Positions 71 to 10,575 of a stretch of DNA of 34,703 nucleotides are shown here, one piece after another. Position numbers and translations under genes: made by a program. Origin of the DNA: Bacteroidota bacterium (GTDB lineage: Bacteria > Bacteroidota > Bacteroidia > Cytophagales > Cyclobacteriaceae); assembly GCA_003973485.1 (NCBI GenBank), contig QNXU01000273.1, positions 1-34,703 of the forward strand, in the 5' to 3' direction. Numbering within the stretch: position 1 is the stretch's first letter; every line of letters begins with the position of its first letter. The notes below the pieces were generated by a model. The model was not told the origin of the DNA. It made no database searches and worked only from the letters and a program-made list of their open reading frames with translations.

Positions 71-1702
71 TTATGCGAAAGACATTTGAAAATAGGAGAA
101 CAAAATAACAGTAGCAGAAGCCATAATTAAAGCCGTAAGTCTGGCTGTTCTCAACCTCCTTTTTTGCTGTAATTCCTTAGCTCTTTGCTCTATTTCATAT
201 TCCTCCTCAGAATGCTCCAAGAAAGAAATAGTTCTTTCATAGGCATGGTGGTAGCGCTGCCCCCAAACTAAAGTTGGGTTGTGCTTTTCTTTCCAGTTTA
301 AAGCCAATTGCAGATCTGGTGGTCTCCACAAACTGGTTTTGCCTTGCTGATACATATCAGCGGCCTCGGCCAATCTCTTATACATCGAAACAGCATCAGC
401 TTCATCATTCACCCAGTTTTTCAAGCGATTCCAAATTCTCATTATACTTTCATGAGAAATATCAATAATAGATTGACTATGCAATGGGACACCATACTGA
501 GGAGTTAATAATGACCTTCCTGGATCACGAAACTTCTCAATTACTTGGATTATCTTTTCTTCGGAAGTATTGGCAATAGCTGCAATTTCATTTAGCTGGG
601 TTGGTCTTCTAATCCCATAATTACCTCCACCTCTTTTTTCGGTTATTGCTTTAAAAAGAAACTCACAAATTCTTTGCTGCTCATCATCAAGCTCTTCATA
701 AGCTTCATTGGCATGCATAGACAAAGCTTCTGACATGGTGCCAATTGCTTCATAATGTTTAATGTCAAGCGGCTCATCATCATAATCTCTAAAATGACTC
801 CAATAATCCCATGTTCGCATAAGTGCATGTTGCAAAATGGGTAACTGATCTGGGTTGTCTCCTAAATCATTTAACAACTGCTGGGTTAATCTTGGAGCAA
901 TTTCTGCATTCCCTACAGCCACAGGACCAGTAATGGCTCTTCTTTTTTGTTCCCGAGTCATTTGAGGAATCAAATATTGACTATCATTAATTTGCTTAGT
1001 CAATTCAGGGAATTGCGAACACTCACCTATAAAATCAGATCGCATAGTAATGGCCACATATATAGGCGCATCAGCATAGTTAATGGCTTCCATTAGTAAA
1101 TTAATAAAAGCCAAGGTTTCATTAACTGATTGCAGATTTGAGGAATCTTTAAATCTAAAAAGTTCTTCAAATTGATCAACTAGTATTAGATAATTCTTTT
1201 CCTTATTGCCTTTAAACTGCATGATGGTTTCCACCAAACCCACAGAAGAACTCCTTAGGAGTGAAGAAATAATGGTTTTCTTAATTTGTTTATCTTCCTC
1301 TGACAATTCTTCATCTACTAAATCTGTTTTGAGAAGTGCCTGAGCCAAATTATCGATTGGGGCTGCACCTGGTCTTGTGACCACAACTTCCCAATCAGTT
1401 GATTTACCTGTTAGAAAACCTCCATATAAGATAGGTAACACTCCGCAATAAATGAAGGAAGATTTACCACTTCCTGAAGGGCCAATAACACCAACAAAAC
1501 GATGTTTTGAAAGCTTTAGCAATACTTCATCACTTTGACCCTCACGTCCAAAAAACAAGTGGCTTTCTTCTATTTTGAAAGGACGTAAGCCTGGGAAAGG
1601 ATTATTTTTCTTTCCGTATTTCGACTGTGGTTTTTCTAATATGGTAGTCTTTTGATCCTTCATGTTAGCTTGCTCCTGCCATTTGTAGCTGCATTTTTTC
1701 AA
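71..1702 (-). CDS. nSTAND1-type P-loop NTPase with C-terminal transmembrane helix
   Basis: N-terminal NPFPGLRPFKIEESHLFFGRE, Walker A GVIGPSGSGKSS, Walker B-like YLILVDQFEELF, then an nSTAND1-like NTPase body; C-terminal hydrophobic helix LTALIMASATVILFSYF. Overlaps the upstream gene by 38 nt. Confidence 0.85.
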   Translation of the reverse strand: MKKCSYKWQEQANMKDQKTTILEKPQSKYGKKNNPFPGLRPFKIEESHLFFGREGQSDEVLLKLSKHRFVGVIGPSGSGKSSFIYCGVLPILYGGFLTGKSTDWEVVVTRPGAAPIDNLAQALLKTDLVDEELSEEDKQIKKTIISSLLRSSSVGLVETIMQFKGNKEKNYLILVDQFEELFRFKDSSNLQSVNETLAFINLLMEAINYADAPIYVAITMRSDFIGECSQFPELTKQINDSQYLIPQMTREQKRRAITGPVAVGNAEIAPRLTQQLLNDLGDNPDQLPILQHALMRTWDYWSHFRDYDDEPLDIKHYEAIGTMSEALSMHANEAYEELDDEQQRICEFLFKAITEKRGGGNYGIRRPTQLNEIAAIANTSEEKIIQVIEKFRDPGRSLLTPQYGVPLHSQSIIDISHESIMRIWNRLKNWVNDEADAVSMYKRLAEAADMYQQGKTSLWRPPDLQLALNWKEKHNPTLVWGQRYHHAYERTISFLEHSEEEYEIEQRAKELQQKRRLRTARLTALIMASATVILFSYFQMSFA

Positions 1703-3125
1703 ATGCCGCCTTAATATCCTTTATAAATTTATTCAATTTTTTTGAATCTTCACTACTATCTACCTCTACCTCATACCGGTTAACATATTCATTTTCAGAG
1801 CCTTTTGCTTTACTAGACTTAAACAGTTTACCTAAAATGGGCTTAGATCTTCCGAAACCAGGTGCTTTCAATAAATCTAACAGCTTCATGTAAACCCATT
1901 GATTATTTACATTCTCTTGGAAAACTATTGCAGCATCCATCTGTTTCAAAGCATCAATATGTTTATTTCTCAATTCCATTAATTCTCCATGTTTTTCCAA
2001 AGTCAGAATTTTTATTTGTTGATCGTCAATTTTTGAAATCAACTTTTCTGCTTCCTTTTGATCCGACTCATCATAAATCAAATAAATCATGGGCAGTTTT
2101 TGATCTTCTTGTGTGAAAGCATTTCTTAACTTTTTATTTAAACCGCTTTCTAAAAGTTCCTCCCATAAAGTGTTTTTAAAATCTTCGAGAGATGTTTGTA
2201 AAACTTCTGCACCTAAAGAAGCATTTGCATCTCTTTTAATATTATGAATGAATGATTTTTGTTTTTCGCTGGCAAATTTTAATGATGGGCTAATCCAAAT
2301 TAATCGATTAAATTTATCTGGCGTCTGCTCGTATTGATCTGCAGCTAATTCATTTTGAATATCCATTAAGGAGGAATCAGAACCGTGAGGAATTGAGCCA
2401 TAAGAAGCACCTACCATGTGAATGGAAAACTGACACTTTTGCAAATCAGCTTTTATTGATTTCTTTAATTCTGCGGAATTATGTGGCAATAAGCCTTTGG
2501 GATAAACTTCATATCCATGGCGGTTTAGTTCTCGCTTAATTATATTCCTTGCACCTGCCAAATCCTGACCTGTTTCCGCCAAATATACCGACCGTCTGTT
2601 ATGAACTAAATCATCATTTTCGTCATTATTCCCCATTTTTAATATAGTTTCATAAATATCAAAACATAAATCCACCATTTTCATCCAATAGCCTTTCTCC
2701 GCCTCTTTGCTGAAAAAATCTGAAAGTTCTTTTTCATGATTTTCATTATCTAAATAGAAAATGTATGCACTTAGTCGCCGAAGTTTCTCAGGGATATCAA
2801 CAAAGTCTAAAGGAGATTTAAATACTGGGAATATCTTATCATTTAATTTTTCGCTATTCTTATTCAGAAATAATGCCTCTAATCTATCCAAACTCACTCC
2901 TGATAAAATAAAATCTGGTGATAAAATAGGTATGTAAATTCCATCCTTCAAGGGAGCGTTTTCTGAAGAATCTGACATCAAATTAATTTGAAACCGTCTG
3001 TTCATAGTCTGCTTAAGCATCATACTTAAGAACTTCTCAAAATAACTAACCCATCCCCTTTTTCCCTTGATAGGTTTATTATCATCTTCAGCATAAATAA
3101 TATTTATATTCAGTTTTTCACTCAT
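1665..3125 (-). CDS. multi-TIR-like domain protein (three tandem TIR/DUF4062-like segments)
   Basis: Segment 1: INIIYAEDD...GWVSYFEKFL...IYIPILSPDFILSGVSLDRLEAL. Segment 2: SVYLAETGQDLAGARNIIKRELNRHGYEVYP...FSIHMVGASYG...DIQNELAA. Segment 3: PMIYLIYDESDQKEAEKLI...AAIVFQENVNNQWVYMKLLDLL. Start overlaps the upstream stop by 4 nt. Confidence 0.7.
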   Translation of the reverse strand: MSEKLNINIIYAEDDNKPIKGKRGWVSYFEKFLSMMLKQTMNRRFQINLMSDSSENAPLKDGIYIPILSPDFILSGVSLDRLEALFLNKNSEKLNDKIFPVFKSPLDFVDIPEKLRRLSAYIFYLDNENHEKELSDFFSKEAEKGYWMKMVDLCFDIYETILKMGNNDENDDLVHNRRSVYLAETGQDLAGARNIIKRELNRHGYEVYPKGLLPHNSAELKKSIKADLQKCQFSIHMVGASYGSIPHGSDSSLMDIQNELAADQYEQTPDKFNRLIWISPSLKFASEKQKSFIHNIKRDANASLGAEVLQTSLEDFKNTLWEELLESGLNKKLRNAFTQEDQKLPMIYLIYDESDQKEAEKLISKIDDQQIKILTLEKHGELMELRNKHIDALKQMDAAIVFQENVNNQWVYMKLLDLLKAPGFGRSKPILGKLFKSSKAKGSENEYVNRYEVEVDSSEDSKKLNKFIKDIKAAFEKMQLQMAGAS

Positions 3126-6100
3126 ACAATTGATTGATAATGTTGGGTAATGGCAGTAAAAATTTGATTTGTAAATTCCTGACTTCTAGACATCAGCGTA
3201 TAGAAATTATTAATATTTAATTGAAAAACTACAGAATCAGTCTCCGCAGTTATTTTATTTGCTTTAAGGTGTTTTTCAGGGACAAATAATTCACCATAAA
3301 CATCCTTTTCCTCTAAAATGATGTCTGCTTCAAATTCCGCTTCCGATTTAAATTTCCCCTCTGCCACTACATATATTGCATTATTTTCAGGGTCGGTTAA
3401 ATCTATTGATTCACCAGAACCCATTCGAAGAACATGTGTATTATCAGCCAGATCACATAGCTGGGCTCCATTTATATGCGAAAAGACCTTAATTTGTTTA
3501 AGAAACATTACTATTTCTACTAATAGAAAGTATCCATCATTCAATCCATCTTCCAATTGGTTATGAGCAATGGTTTCAATTAATTCTTCCCGTTCTTCAT
3601 GTTTTACTCTTTCAATCACCTTCTCAAATTTATTGGGCGATCGATGGTATAGTAACCATGCTGCAACTTCTTGTAATAATCTATCATCATTAAATATATG
3701 AGCTATTACGGCATAGTCAGGCTCATAATCCTTCTGAAAAGCAAGGTTATATAATGCACAAGCTTTTATCCATCTGGAAAGTTGATTGAAATCTCGGTTT
3801 AATATATTGTTTAAAAGCATTAGAGGCTCAAAATGCTTTCTAGGAAAGAAGTGTTCTAAAGCCTTAATTTTTTCATTCACAGAAATATCATCAATTAAAG
3901 GAAAGAGCTTTGATTTTAGTTCTGAACTTATAAACATGTCCAGCAATTCAATTCCGTAAGCAATTCCTTCCGAGGTTTCTGATAAAATATTCTCCTTAAC
4001 TAAAGAAACTGATTCGGTATCATAAACCAGCGATAGAAATAAAAATATCTGTTCATAATTGTGACCAATTTCTTCTTTGAAAGCTTGACGAATGATATAA
4101 TACTGATCTTCTTTTGGCAATTCAGTTAATGCGGCCATATTCCAAACCGTTTTGCCGATTTCATCTTCTATGAGCGTAAGGATTATTTGTGCTTGATTAC
4201 CTTCTGCATTAAAATCTTCATAACCAAACCCATTTAACATTTCATATACTATCCGTTTGTCGGGATAGTCAATCTTTTTAAGCAAGAGTTTTTCAGCCTC
4301 ATCTCCTCCAATTTTACCCATTATCCTAACTACTGCCATTTTAATTTTATCAGTCTGACCAGATTTATGAAATGCAGATTCCAAATGGTGAAGCACATCA
4401 CTTCCAGCAGCAACTAGTGCTGCAGCTGCTGCATGTCCAAATTTTTCTGAATCCAACATATCAATCAACACATTCCATGTTTCATGTCGCTTTAGAATTC
4501 TTGCCGTTTCTATTGCCTCCATTCTAACTCTTAAATTGGCATCCTTTAAGAGATCCAATAACAAAAAGATGTTTTTAGCATCGGCATGTTGTCTAAATAT
4601 TCTGGCTGTATATAGTCTTTTCTCGTGTTCTAATGATCTTGCCCAAGTACTTAATTGTTCAAAGGTTACTGGAGTCACATCTCTGGATTGACTTTCTTTC
4701 AAGGCTTTTTCCGCAAGTTTTCGAAGCGTTAAATCTGAGCCTTCTGAAAAGGCCTGATTTGGCTCTCCAATATATTCCTGCATTTTAGGAGAAACATCAC
4801 CCTTAAAATTTTCCTTAAATGATGAAAATTCTTCTGGCTCTAGTTTTTCCATTAATTTTAAACTGTAAAGCCTTTTATGCTCTTCATTGCTATTAACTTG
4901 CTTCTGTAAAAGCCTACTGATAGAGTTTTCATTTTCATCAACCTTATTTTTTTCTTTATTTCTGATAAGTGTGCCTTGTAGCGTTGATCTATAGCCTTTA
5001 TGTAATTTTTGAGTAACCAAATACCATATCAATAATAAAGGAATTACTGCAATTGAAATTGTCAGGAGATTAAATACCTCAACATTGTTAAGCACAATAA
5101 TGATAGCACCCGCAATCATTCCCGCAAAAGCATTGACTAAACCTTGAATTTTTACTTGAATATCAAAGCGGTTTTCCACATCAAGCGGAAGAAAATAAAG
5201 CTTAAAGGCAGGCTCATCCAAAGCATCTTTTAAGGAAGTAACAAATAATTTACTTACTGCAATGATTACAAAAAAGAATATAAAAGTTGGATCATCTGGA
5301 GTAAAACCAAAACCAGCACCTATTAAACAAGCTGCACCTACCATGATAAGGATTAAAATAGGATTAATCAATAATGATACTTTCAATCCGTAAAGTGCTA
5401 TAATTTTATCTGTTGCGAAAGTTTGGAAAAGAAAGCTGAAAATTATGATAGTACCATTAAAATAGGCTAAAAATGTAGCTAAGTTACTTTCATTAAATTG
5501 AGCTGAAGCAACACTAAAGAATGAATAATCAATAAAGGTTATGGCCACAACACTCACCAAAACAAAGCCTACCATCAGCAACATATATTTATCCGTGAGT
5601 ACTTTTTTATAGGGAACAAATTTGTTTCTACCGGCTTTAACCAAGAATTTTTTTGAACTATTCATCAGCCAAAGGAAGGATAAAAACATTCCTCCAAGAC
5701 TAATAACGCTCATGGTAATTAGATCTTTTTCGGCAAAATCTGGCCTATTCAATAAATAAGGTATGATTACTAATAGCGCTAAGATAGAAGCTGTTAATTG
5801 CCCTGTATCAATTCCTCCTATAATTCTTTTTGATTGACGTAAATCAAATAAACGACCAAATGCACCCCAAAAAATTAATAATATTAAATAAGTAAAGGGA
5901 AGTACGAAAGTGAAAGTAATAAAATATAAAGGAGATACATCTGGGAGATATGAGTAAGCTATTTCCACTGCAATTAAGAGTAAAAATATGATGAGTAAGG
6001 TATATCCTGCTAATCGAACAAAACTAGTTTTGGATTGAAAATAATTAAAAAGATAAGTGGCCAAAACTCCAATTGCACCAGAAACTACAATAGCTAAAGG

Positions 6101-6262
6101 CAAGTCTGTTTCTTCACTGAAATTATTCAAAAACAAGGATTCTGCGCCTACTGCAAGACCAGACACAAAAAAGCCCATAAAGAATCCCATAAGAAGTAGC
6201 AAAAATACTCTTTTGGATTCTGGTTCTTCTGCATTTAAAATGTTGAGGACCAGCTTCTTCAA
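3122..6262 (-). CDS. TLC/ADP-ATP translocase-like (Npt-like) membrane protein with HEAT-like repeats and C-terminal cNMP-binding-like domain
   Basis: About 12 hydrophobic helices in the N-terminal 420 aa, including FGRLFDLRQSKRIIGGIDTGQ; alpha-helical repeat region NIFLLLDLLKDANLRVRMEAIETARIL...; C-terminal Crp-like beta-roll IYVVAEGKFKSEAEFEADIILEEKDVYGELFVPE... Confidence 0.75.
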   Translation of the reverse strand: MKKLVLNILNAEEPESKRVFLLLLMGFFMGFFVSGLAVGAESLFLNNFSEETDLPLAIVVSGAIGVLATYLFNYFQSKTSFVRLAGYTLLIIFLLLIAVEIAYSYLPDVSPLYFITFTFVLPFTYLILLIFWGAFGRLFDLRQSKRIIGGIDTGQLTASILALLVIIPYLLNRPDFAEKDLITMSVISLGGMFLSFLWLMNSSKKFLVKAGRNKFVPYKKVLTDKYMLLMVGFVLVSVVAITFIDYSFFSVASAQFNESNLATFLAYFNGTIIIFSFLFQTFATDKIIALYGLKVSLLINPILILIMVGAACLIGAGFGFTPDDPTFIFFFVIIAVSKLFVTSLKDALDEPAFKLYFLPLDVENRFDIQVKIQGLVNAFAGMIAGAIIIVLNNVEVFNLLTISIAVIPLLLIWYLVTQKLHKGYRSTLQGTLIRNKEKNKVDENENSISRLLQKQVNSNEEHKRLYSLKLMEKLEPEEFSSFKENFKGDVSPKMQEYIGEPNQAFSEGSDLTLRKLAEKALKESQSRDVTPVTFEQLSTWARSLEHEKRLYTARIFRQHADAKNIFLLLDLLKDANLRVRMEAIETARILKRHETWNVLIDMLDSEKFGHAAAAALVAAGSDVLHHLESAFHKSGQTDKIKMAVVRIMGKIGGDEAEKLLLKKIDYPDKRIVYEMLNGFGYEDFNAEGNQAQIILTLIEDEIGKTVWNMAALTELPKEDQYYIIRQAFKEEIGHNYEQIFLFLSLVYDTESVSLVKENILSETSEGIAYGIELLDMFISSELKSKLFPLIDDISVNEKIKALEHFFPRKHFEPLMLLNNILNRDFNQLSRWIKACALYNLAFQKDYEPDYAVIAHIFNDDRLLQEVAAWLLYHRSPNKFEKVIERVKHEEREELIETIAHNQLEDGLNDGYFLLVEIVMFLKQIKVFSHINGAQLCDLADNTHVLRMGSGESIDLTDPENNAIYVVAEGKFKSEAEFEADIILEEKDVYGELFVPEKHLKANKITAETDSVVFQLNINNFYTLMSRSQEFTNQIFTAITQHYQSIV

Positions 6263-8661: not shown

Positions 8662-9975
8662 TCACATATCTTCCAAGGATAATTTTACATACTCAATTTT
8701 GTAGTCTTTGAAATCTTTCAATAATTTCTCTGATTTACTTTCAAGCTTTTTTAAATCAATTTTCTTTTTATTAAGCTTCACCTCAGCTAAAATTATCTTT
8801 CTTTCTAACTCATTTATGGCAACTAAATCAATTTCATTTAGATTTCGCTTTTCCCAGTAGTTGCCTACCATTGAGTAATTGCCTGATTCTTCAAATTGCT
8901 GTCTAAAATACCGCTCAAGCATGTAACCACTAAAAGTGTCAAAATCACGTTTTACGATTGCTTTTACATATTCATAATTTCCTATTTCAATTGCACTTCT
9001 GTTTTTATATATAAAGCGGAACCAAAAATTTAGAAAATTATCTTTTATCTGATATTTGATTTTACGGCTATTTGGCTTTGCAAAAATCGGTTTTACTTGC
9101 TCAATAATCTGATATTCATTTTCCAGTCTATCTAAAAAACCACCTATTGATCCTCCCAAGATAGACTCTATTTCAGTTCGGGATGTTTTCGAAGAAGCTA
9201 TCAAGGTTAAAATCGAAAAATGAGTGTGATAATCTTTTCCTAATTCATCTATCAATACATTTTTACCTTCATCTATAAATAGAGAATTCTCTCTAAACAT
9301 CTCATTTAAAATAGTTTCTAAATCAAAAGCTTCTGCTATAATTAAGTTTTCAACATATTTAGCTACACCTCCAGTAAAAATATAGAATGGAAAAATATTT
9401 TGATACGATACATTCTTCACATGATCTTCAAGGATTTCTTTAAGCACATTAATCTTAAATGGTTTAATGCTCATTCTGGCGGTTGCTCTTGAAAAAAGTG
9501 GTTCTTTTGAGTTTTCAAAAATGCGCTTCATTAAAGAATAGATAGAGCCACACAAAATTAAATTAATCTGACTCCCTTCTTTTTTACTATCCCAAATATT
9601 TTGCATTTCACTCATGATGGAAGGATTTATGGAAAGAAATTCTTGAAATTCATCAATTGCTAGTGTAAATGGAATTTCTTTAGAAATATCCATCAGCCAT
9701 GAAAAGAGCTGGCTGAATTTGGTAATTTCACCATGAGGTTGCCTTTTTAATTGAAATTGGATAAGTTCTAGGAATTCGGCACATAAAAGTTGCTCAGACT
9801 TTTTAGCAATAAAAAGATATAAGGCAGTAGAGTTTGGTTCTATGCTTTTTTTAATCAAACTAGTTTTTCCAATCCTTCTCCTTCCCACCATTACAGTCAT
9901 CTGAGCATTAGTTAATGACCGCCTTTTAATAAGTGCTAAATTCTCTAATTCTGATTCTCTATTATAAAATCTCAT
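8662..9975 (-). CDS. AAA/P-loop ATPase with C-terminal DUF234/DUF4143-like nuclease-related domain
   Basis: MRFYNRESELENL...VMVGRRRIGKTSLIKK (Walker A), FTLAIDEFQEF (Walker B), C-terminal RNLNEIDLVAINELERKIILAEVKLNKKK. Start taken at MRFYNRE. Confidence 0.85.
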   Translation of the reverse strand: MRFYNRESELENLALIKRRSLTNAQMTVMVGRRRIGKTSLIKKSIEPNSTALYLFIAKKSEQLLCAEFLELIQFQLKRQPHGEITKFSQLFSWLMDISKEIPFTLAIDEFQEFLSINPSIMSEMQNIWDSKKEGSQINLILCGSIYSLMKRIFENSKEPLFSRATARMSIKPFKINVLKEILEDHVKNVSYQNIFPFYIFTGGVAKYVENLIIAEAFDLETILNEMFRENSLFIDEGKNVLIDELGKDYHTHFSILTLIASSKTSRTEIESILGGSIGGFLDRLENEYQIIEQVKPIFAKPNSRKIKYQIKDNFLNFWFRFIYKNRSAIEIGNYEYVKAIVKRDFDTFSGYMLERYFRQQFEESGNYSMVGNYWEKRNLNEIDLVAINELERKIILAEVKLNKKKIDLKKLESKSEKLLKDFKDYKIEYVKLSLEDM

Positions 9976-10071
9976 GATTAATTTATTGTAATACAAATTA
10001 CGGTAATTTATATTACAATAAAAACAGTTGTTTCTAATAAACCATCCAAACATCTCATAAGTTGATATAGC

Positions 10072-10575
10072 ATGGAAATTCAAGAAAACACAGTTGTTAC
10101 TTTATCCTATCATGTGCGCAAGAAAGATGCAGAAGGAGAATTAATGGATTTCTATGGCCAGTCATATCCTTTGAGATTCCTTTTTGGAAGTGGCAAAATG
10201 CTTCCTTACTTTGAAGAGCAATTGAGAGGGAAAAACCAAAATGAAACTTTTTCATTTAAGCTTCCTGCAGATTTTGCTTATGGCAAAAAAGATGAAAGCC
10301 TGATAAAATCTATTCCTCTTGAGGACTTTACAGAAAAAGAAGGATATACCAAAGAGACTTTAGAAGTTGGTGCTTATATCCGTTATGAAAACCATAAGAA
10401 TCACAAAGCGGAAAAATCATTGATAAAAATAAAAAGGAAGTAAAAGTAGATTTTAATCATCCATTAGCAGGGCAAAATCTATTTTAAAGGCAATATAATC
10501 TCCGTTAGGAAGGCCTCTTTAGAAGAAATTGAAAGGCAGCACCATATTGAACCAGATGGTATTCGCTTTCAATAA
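10072..10575 (+). pseudogene. FKBP-type peptidyl-prolyl isomerase, SlyD-like, with two apparent frameshifts
   Basis: ORF 10072-10443 encodes VVTLSYHVRKKDAEGELMDFYGQSYPLRFLFGSGKMLPYFEEQLRGK...FAYGKKD. Another frame then continues with KKEVKVDFNHPLAGQNL, and frame 1 resumes with KGNIISVRKASLEEIERQHHIEPDGIRFQ, stop 10573-10575. Confidence 0.75.

What the first reader, a model, noticed from the sequence alone, without database searches (positions are those of the whole stretch)
71..6262. Coupled three-gene operon: TLC-like translocase-HEAT-cNMP protein, triple TIR-like protein, membrane nSTAND1 NTPase
Sequence shows three minus-strand genes with overlapping ends (4-nt overlap at 3122-3125, 38-nt overlap at 1665-1702), so they are likely co-translated. 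Family knowledge: the TLC family moves nucleotides (ATP/ADP, in some members NAD), TIR domains often cleave NAD+ or make nucleotide signals, and nSTAND NTPases are signal-activated switches common in prokaryotic conflict systems. Inference: the products may form a membrane-associated sensing and effector system linking nucleotide flux or binding (HEAT/cNMP), NTPase gating, and NAD+-related or signalling TIR activity. I do not know this exact trio as a named defence system.
Basis: partly seen in the sequence, partly recalled or inferred. Interest (0 to 1): 0.8.

Follow-up and report, generated by a model that had tools for sequence, protein, structure and literature searches.

The report
Half of a six-gene envelope operon
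The three genes are real, but they are the first half of a six-gene set, widespread in one branch of gliding bacteria, that probably carries signals between the cell interior and a giant protein on its surface; it looks like inherited cell-surface machinery rather than the antiviral system first suggested.

Summary
The trio is real and lies at the end of a Marivirga MAG contig. The third gene runs off the contig: relatives encode a ~1056-aa nSTAND1-TM-coiled coil-WD40 protein. In four other Marivirga genomes and about 55 further loci the genes continue, with near-zero spacing, into an outer-membrane β-barrel, a lipoprotein and a giant (2,100-5,100 aa) Ig/fn3 protein with a type IX secretion tail (8 of 8 complete copies). 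Gene 1 is an NTT-HEAT-cNBD fusion. Gene 2 has TIR_2 and DUF4062 domains, but both catalytic glutamates are lost: the TIR one in all 56 core orthologues; the DUF4062 one is Gln in 56 of 59. This Gln marks every nSTAND1-linked DUF4062 sampled (18 of 18), against 1 of 46 unlinked ones. Gene 1 occurs in 105 of 197 genomes of its family, often alongside an ancient TIR-less paralogue; the middle protein has no plasmid match. An NADase or antiphage reading is therefore disfavoured. Best reading: a trans-envelope STAND signalling complex controlling, or sensing, a cognate giant surface protein. The function is inferred, not shown.

The parts
3122..6262 (-). Gene 1: NTT-HEAT-cNBD fusion, 1046 aa. NTT/MFS 12-TM domain residues 1-440 (about 4943-6262), HEAT region about 544-900, degenerate cNBD 923-1035 (about 3158-3496)
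   Evidence: cNBD phosphate-cassette Arg not conserved
1665..3125 (-). Gene 2: TIR_2 + DUF4062 + third alpha/beta domain, 486 aa; predicted catalytically dead adaptor
2352..2588 (-). DUF4062 domain of gene 2; Q257 (about 2355-2357) stands where KpSwz has catalytic E97
71..1702 (-). Gene 3, 5' half only: nSTAND1 NTPase (about 338-1600) and start of the single TM; likely start ATG 1663; the real gene continues beyond the contig end
1..95 (.). Contig-end tail without homology to orthologues; it creates the stop at 71-73, so the apparent stop is not trustworthy

Best explanation
The trio is the promoter-proximal half of a six-gene, apparently vertically inherited trans-envelope operon. Shown by sequence: gene 1 is a 12-TM NTT-fold protein with HEAT and cNBD-like domains; gene 2 is a soluble TIR/DUF4062 protein that has lost the known catalytic glutamates; gene 3 is an nSTAND1 NTPase with one TM helix followed by a coiled coil and WD40 propeller; genes 4-6 (in relatives, and on contig C215 here) are an OM beta-barrel, a lipoprotein and a giant Ig/fn3 protein with a type IX secretion tail. 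Inferred mechanism: the nSTAND1 NTPase sits on the cytoplasmic face with its propeller in the periplasm; the dead TIR/DUF4062 protein is its oligomerisation adaptor; the NTT-HEAT-cNBD protein is a membrane receptor or gate reporting nucleotide or energy state. ATP-driven STAND switching then links the inside of the cell to export, anchoring or occupancy of the giant surface protein through the barrel and lipoprotein. In variant operons a SpoIIE-type phosphatase is inserted, suggesting that phosphorylation signalling can be wired in. Neither the direction of signalling nor the substrate is shown.
For: Conserved order NTT-TIR-nSTAND1-barrel-lipoprotein-next gene in 48 of 80 loci, and the same minus TIR in 11; most others are cut by contig ends. 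Median gaps 12, 4, 3 and -4 nt. Intact in four other Marivirga genomes. All 8 complete giants end in Por_Secre_tail. The divergent neighbour of gene 1 in 29 of 68 loci is of a type with the TPR-PD40-CRD-OmpA architecture described for the T9SS component PG1058/PorE (PMC5053529). All 63 full nSTAND1 proteins have a TM segment at 450-600, in 61 of them the only one, mean net charge +2.6 before and -0.4 after it; a C-terminal Cys pair occurs in 51 of 63. SpoIIE phosphatases inserted in L041, L203 and L044. Catalytic Glu lost and Gln tied to nSTAND1 linkage. Family-wide distribution and deep paralogy.
Against: No experiment. Topology rests on hydropathy and charge only. No physical contact between the inner-membrane trio and the barrel/giant is shown; co-transcription could mean co-regulation only. 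The model of gene 2 is weak (pLDDT 68) and its fold search unspecific. TIR domains can act without the canonical Glu in ways not tested here. In this genome the link from C5 to C215 crosses a contig gap.
Confidence: 0.5

Rival explanations
1. Antiphage abortive-infection system: the STAND protein senses infection and the TIR/DUF4062 protein depletes NAD+.
For: TIR and DUF4062 domains occur in NADase defence proteins such as Swarozyc (PMC13174449); nSTAND1 was named in counter-invader systems (PMC8195603); L044 and L045 keep a Glu in the first TIR domain.
Against: Catalytic Glu absent from both domains in the core family; carried by 105 of 197 family genomes with deep paralogues; no plasmid match for the TIR protein; no convincing PADLOC match in the trio; co-operonic surface proteins are hard to explain.
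Confidence: 0.12
2. An ATP-fuelled adhesion or gliding machine: the STAND ATPase and NTT protein act mechanically or energetically on the barrel, lipoprotein and giant adhesin rather than signalling.
For: Trans-envelope gene set, giant Ig/fn3 type IX cargo, PorE-like neighbour.
Against: The barrel hits OMP_b-brl_2 only, not a PorP/SprF model, and the giant has a Por_Secre_tail rather than a gliding-type (CHU_C) tail; no known motor subunit in the operon.
Confidence: 0.2
3. Regulated nucleotide (ATP/ADP/NAD) transport, with HEAT-cNBD and STAND domains as regulators and genes 4-6 as an unrelated surface cassette in the same transcript.
For: NTT fold and homology; NTT-HEAT-cNBD fusions known and proposed to regulate ATP transport (PMC5381601).
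Against: Gene order kept over much of a family and in two paralogues argues for function as one unit; the cNBD phosphate-cassette Arg is not conserved.
Confidence: 0.12

Closest known systems
NTT-HEAT-cNBD fusion proteins (Major, Embley and Williams 2017, PMC5381601)
   Same: Gene 1 has the same three-domain order; NTT fold confirmed by profile and structure.
   Different: That paper reports such fusions mainly in bacteria, function unknown; the passages read describe no TIR/nSTAND1/T9SS operon. Here the cNBD lacks the phosphate-binding Arg.
DUF4062 TIR-like NADases: Swarozyc and TEP1 (PMC13174449)
   Same: DUF4062 domain; DUF4062-STAND-WD40 logic as in TEP1/NWD1, here split over two genes.
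   Different: Catalytic Glu replaced by Gln; family-wide operon, not a patchy defence-island gene.
nSTAND1 conflict systems (PMC8195603)
   Same: Same NTPase family with WD40 sensor and a TIR-class partner gene.
   Different: A TM helix puts the propeller in the periplasm by prediction; no intact effector; linked to envelope genes.
Type IX secretion cargo and PG1058/PorE (PMC5053529)
   Same: Giant protein carries the type IX tail; PorE-architecture gene often divergently adjacent.
   Different: The operon itself encodes no known T9SS core component.

Membership tests
DUF4062 NADase / Swarozyc | DUF4062 domain | tested here: met
   PF13271 above cut-off in the window protein; 57 of 59 relatives match
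DUF4062 NADase / Swarozyc | catalytic Glu (KpSwz E97) | tested here: not met
   Gln in 56 of 59, Glu in 2 (L107, L114), Thr in 1; position fixed by the KpSwz E97A chain 10wc
DUF4062 NADase / Swarozyc | defence-island or mobile, patchy distribution | tested here: not met
   one PADLOC candidate gene (PDC-S27) lies 2.4 kb upstream in the window but not at that place in M. arenosa
DUF4062 NADase / Swarozyc | NAD+ hydrolysis | not testable with these tools
   needs assay
TIR NADase | WCxxE catalytic Glu in TIR domain 1 | tested here: not met
   position 81 is R in the window, N/L/H/T etc. in the 56 core orthologues; E only in the outlying L044 and L045
NTT-HEAT-cNBD fusion | NTT domain | tested here: met
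   profile hit E 1e-15 to 1e-18; Foldseek 9j3m TMt 0.73
NTT-HEAT-cNBD fusion | HEAT repeats and cNBD | tested here: met
   cNBD degenerate
NTT-HEAT-cNBD fusion | nucleotide transport | not testable with these tools
   needs transport assay
nSTAND1 NTPase | PF20703 with Walker A/B | tested here: met
   E 1e-98; GPSGSGKSS and LILVDQFEE in the window; Walker B in 63 of 63, strict Walker A pattern in 53 of 63 relatives
nSTAND1 conflict system | active effector domain | tested here: not met
   no effector with intact known catalytic residue in the operon
Type IX secretion cargo (gene 6) | C-terminal sorting domain | tested here: met
   Por_Secre_tail in 8 of 8 complete giants of relatives; gene 6 on C215 of this genome is cut by the contig end
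SprB/SprF gliding adhesin cluster | PorP/SprF barrel and gliding-type CTD | tested here: not met
   barrel hits only OMP_b-brl_2; tail is Por_Secre_tail

The most novel reading that the evidence does not exclude
A trans-envelope STAND system: a cytoplasmic nSTAND1 NTPase with a periplasmic WD40 sensor, a catalytically dead TIR/DUF4062 adaptor and an NTT-based nucleotide sensor together control a cognate giant surface protein. More generally, nSTAND1-coupled DUF4062 proteins form a Gln-bearing, non-NADase signalling class, so immune-type STAND/TIR machinery also runs ordinary surface biology.
Probability: 0.35. Interest if true: 0.75.

Novelty: new variant of a known kind. Interest (0 to 1): 0.56.

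Why it matters
STAND and TIR genes are now often read as antiphage defence. This operon is a case where the same parts look like inherited envelope machinery, and the Glu-to-Gln rule gives a simple sequence test for separating DUF4062 adaptors from NADases. It also gives NTT-HEAT-cNBD fusions, whose function was left open in 2017, a concrete genomic partner set to test.

Tried and rejected
IS insertion or true truncation of the nSTAND gene: the 90-bp contig end has no good second copy in the genome; the C215 half is orthologous but does not join cleanly, so an assembly break is preferred and truncation is not excluded. Foldseek of the gene 2 model: low confidence, unspecific. Profile comparison of the three TIR-like domains with one another: insignificant except domain 2 versus 3. 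PDB search with L059: no relevant hit. Chryseolinea serpens locus L089 first seemed to lack TIR: an antisense-ORF artefact, corrected. A Glu-bearing DUF4062 protein with an apparent STAND match (L253): marginal hit within the same protein (E 4e-6), not counted as nSTAND1-linked. Paper searches found no description of this operon; the library is open-access only.

Full report
OBSERVATION. The three minus-strand ORFs are present as described. The 4-nt overlap is a true ATGA junction; the 38-nt overlap exists only if a TTG start is used, and an ATG one base after the TIR stop is likelier, as in M. arenosa. The window is the whole of contig C5 of a 457-contig, 87%-complete assembly. Gene 1 is 84% identical to the Marivirga arenosa orthologue, so the organism is a Marivirga. 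The nSTAND gene is incomplete: Marivirga orthologues are 1036-1056 aa, and full-length relatives end in a WD40 propeller. Homology stops near position 95 of the window; the propeller half lies on contig C215 with the next three genes and is 67% identical to M. arenosa. The stop at 71-73 is therefore not reliable.

THE WHOLE OPERON. Among 80 loci fetched with a gene 1 profile, 48 show gene 1-TIR-nSTAND1-barrel-lipoprotein-next gene and 11 the same without TIR; most of the rest are cut by contig ends. Median spacings are 12, 4, 3 and -4 nt. Loci L150 and L152 keep gene 1 without the rest. In M. arenosa and in three Marivirga genomes reached by genome search the operon ends in a giant protein of 3,068-3,327 aa; M. 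aurantiaca (L075) shows the same order up to the start of the giant. In other genera the giant has 2,141-5,125 aa. All eight complete giants carry the type IX secretion tail, and Ig, fn3 or PKD domains were found where whole or long stretches were scanned. In 29 of 68 loci a divergent neighbour of gene 1 resembles L042:5563-8010, which has the TPR-PD40-CRD-OmpA order of the T9SS component PG1058 (PMC5053529).

GENE 1. A 47-sequence profile hits ATP/ADP translocators of Arabidopsis and Chlamydia, cGMP-kinase cNBDs and HEAT-type repeats. The model (pLDDT 80) matches AtNTT1 best. NTT-HEAT-cNBD fusions were described in 2017 with unknown function (PMC5381601). The cNBD lacks a conserved phosphate-cassette Arg, so cyclic-nucleotide binding is doubtful (inference from the family motif).

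GENE 2. TIR_2 matches 52 and DUF4062 57 of 59 members. A 2026 preprint shows DUF4062 proteins to be TIR-like NADases requiring E97 in KpSwz (PMC13174449). The solved KpSwz chain aligned with a canonical DUF4062 shows an Ala exactly at Ser+5 of the SxTxxE motif, which I take to be the E97A mutation of the published structure. In the operon family that residue is Gln in 56 of 59. In TIR domain 1 the residue three after the conserved Cys, the catalytic Glu of TIR NADases by family knowledge, is Arg in the window and never Glu in the 56 core orthologues. The third domain has WxxxK at the analogous place (57 of 59), but its TIR assignment is weak. I conclude a pseudo-enzyme adaptor.

A WIDER RULE. 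Sampling DUF4062 across the phylum and scoring 1.5 kb of flank (longer for the first loci) for nSTAND1, all 18 distinct nSTAND1-linked DUF4062 domains have Gln at this position, while 45 of 46 unlinked ones have Glu; one further Glu protein (L253) has only a marginal STAND match. The Gln class is largely one group by profile score, so this may be a single event; the more divergent L243, L244 and L259 also show Gln, at lower alignment certainty.

GENE 3. In all 63 full-length nSTAND1 proteins a TM segment follows the NTPase; net charge is positive before and slightly negative after it, and Walker B is intact in all. This predicts NTPase inside, coiled coil and WD40 outside. A conserved C-terminal Cys pair (51 of 63) fits a periplasmic propeller (inference).

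DISTRIBUTION. Gene 1 homologues at E <= 1e-60 occur in 105 of 197 genomes and 47 of 85 genera of the family, including 5 of 6 Marivirga, against 14 of 194 genomes for any match in the class sample. TIR and TIR-less versions form a deep split with few label changes (one of those changes is the L089 artefact), and 11 of 14 chosen genomes hold a second full-type copy. The TIR protein has no plasmid match; gene 1 has three, distant (24-29% identity). In this genome and in M. arenosa the second copy is a variant with a SpoIIE phosphatase gene between genes 1 and 2; L044 has a HAMP-SpoIIE there.

MECHANISM AND VERDICT. Shown: gene content, order, domain make-up, loss of catalytic residues, type IX tail, distribution. 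Inferred: topology, complex formation, and that STAND switching is coupled to the giant surface protein. The NADase/defence reading is disfavoured but not excluded. No description of this operon was found in the open-access library searched; each part is of a known kind, the combination looks new.

Noticed in passing
window 8662-10083 (-): AAA ATPase_2/DUF234 protein matching PADLOC candidate PDC-S27 (E 4e-51); not at this place in M. arenosa L074, so probably an accessory insertion.
   Followed up: partly
L041 (contig C119) with L070 (C246); M. arenosa L203/L204: Second, divergent copy of the operon: 845-aa gene 1 relative, SpoIIE phosphatase with N-terminal propeller-like region, TIR-like 456 aa, nSTAND1, barrel, lipoprotein, giant of more than 4,039 aa.
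   Followed up: partly
L044 4420-6465: HAMP-SpoIIE phosphatase gene inserted between gene 1 and the TIR gene; this TIR protein keeps Glu in TIR domain 1 but Gln in DUF4062.
   Followed up: partly
L058 and L059: DUF4062 protein (532-533 aa) followed by two large nSTAND1 genes in genomes that also carry the six-gene operon.
   Followed up: partly
L107 and L114: Two near-identical operon members with Glu at the DUF4062 catalytic position, against Gln in nearly all others.
   Followed up: no
L150 and L152: TIR-less type gene 1 standing without nSTAND1, barrel or lipoprotein genes downstream; the partner genes are lost or elsewhere.
   Followed up: no
L045 5139-13175: TIR + nSTAND1 pair beside a TrkA_N-domain membrane protein and a GH18 protein instead of gene 1.
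   Followed up: no
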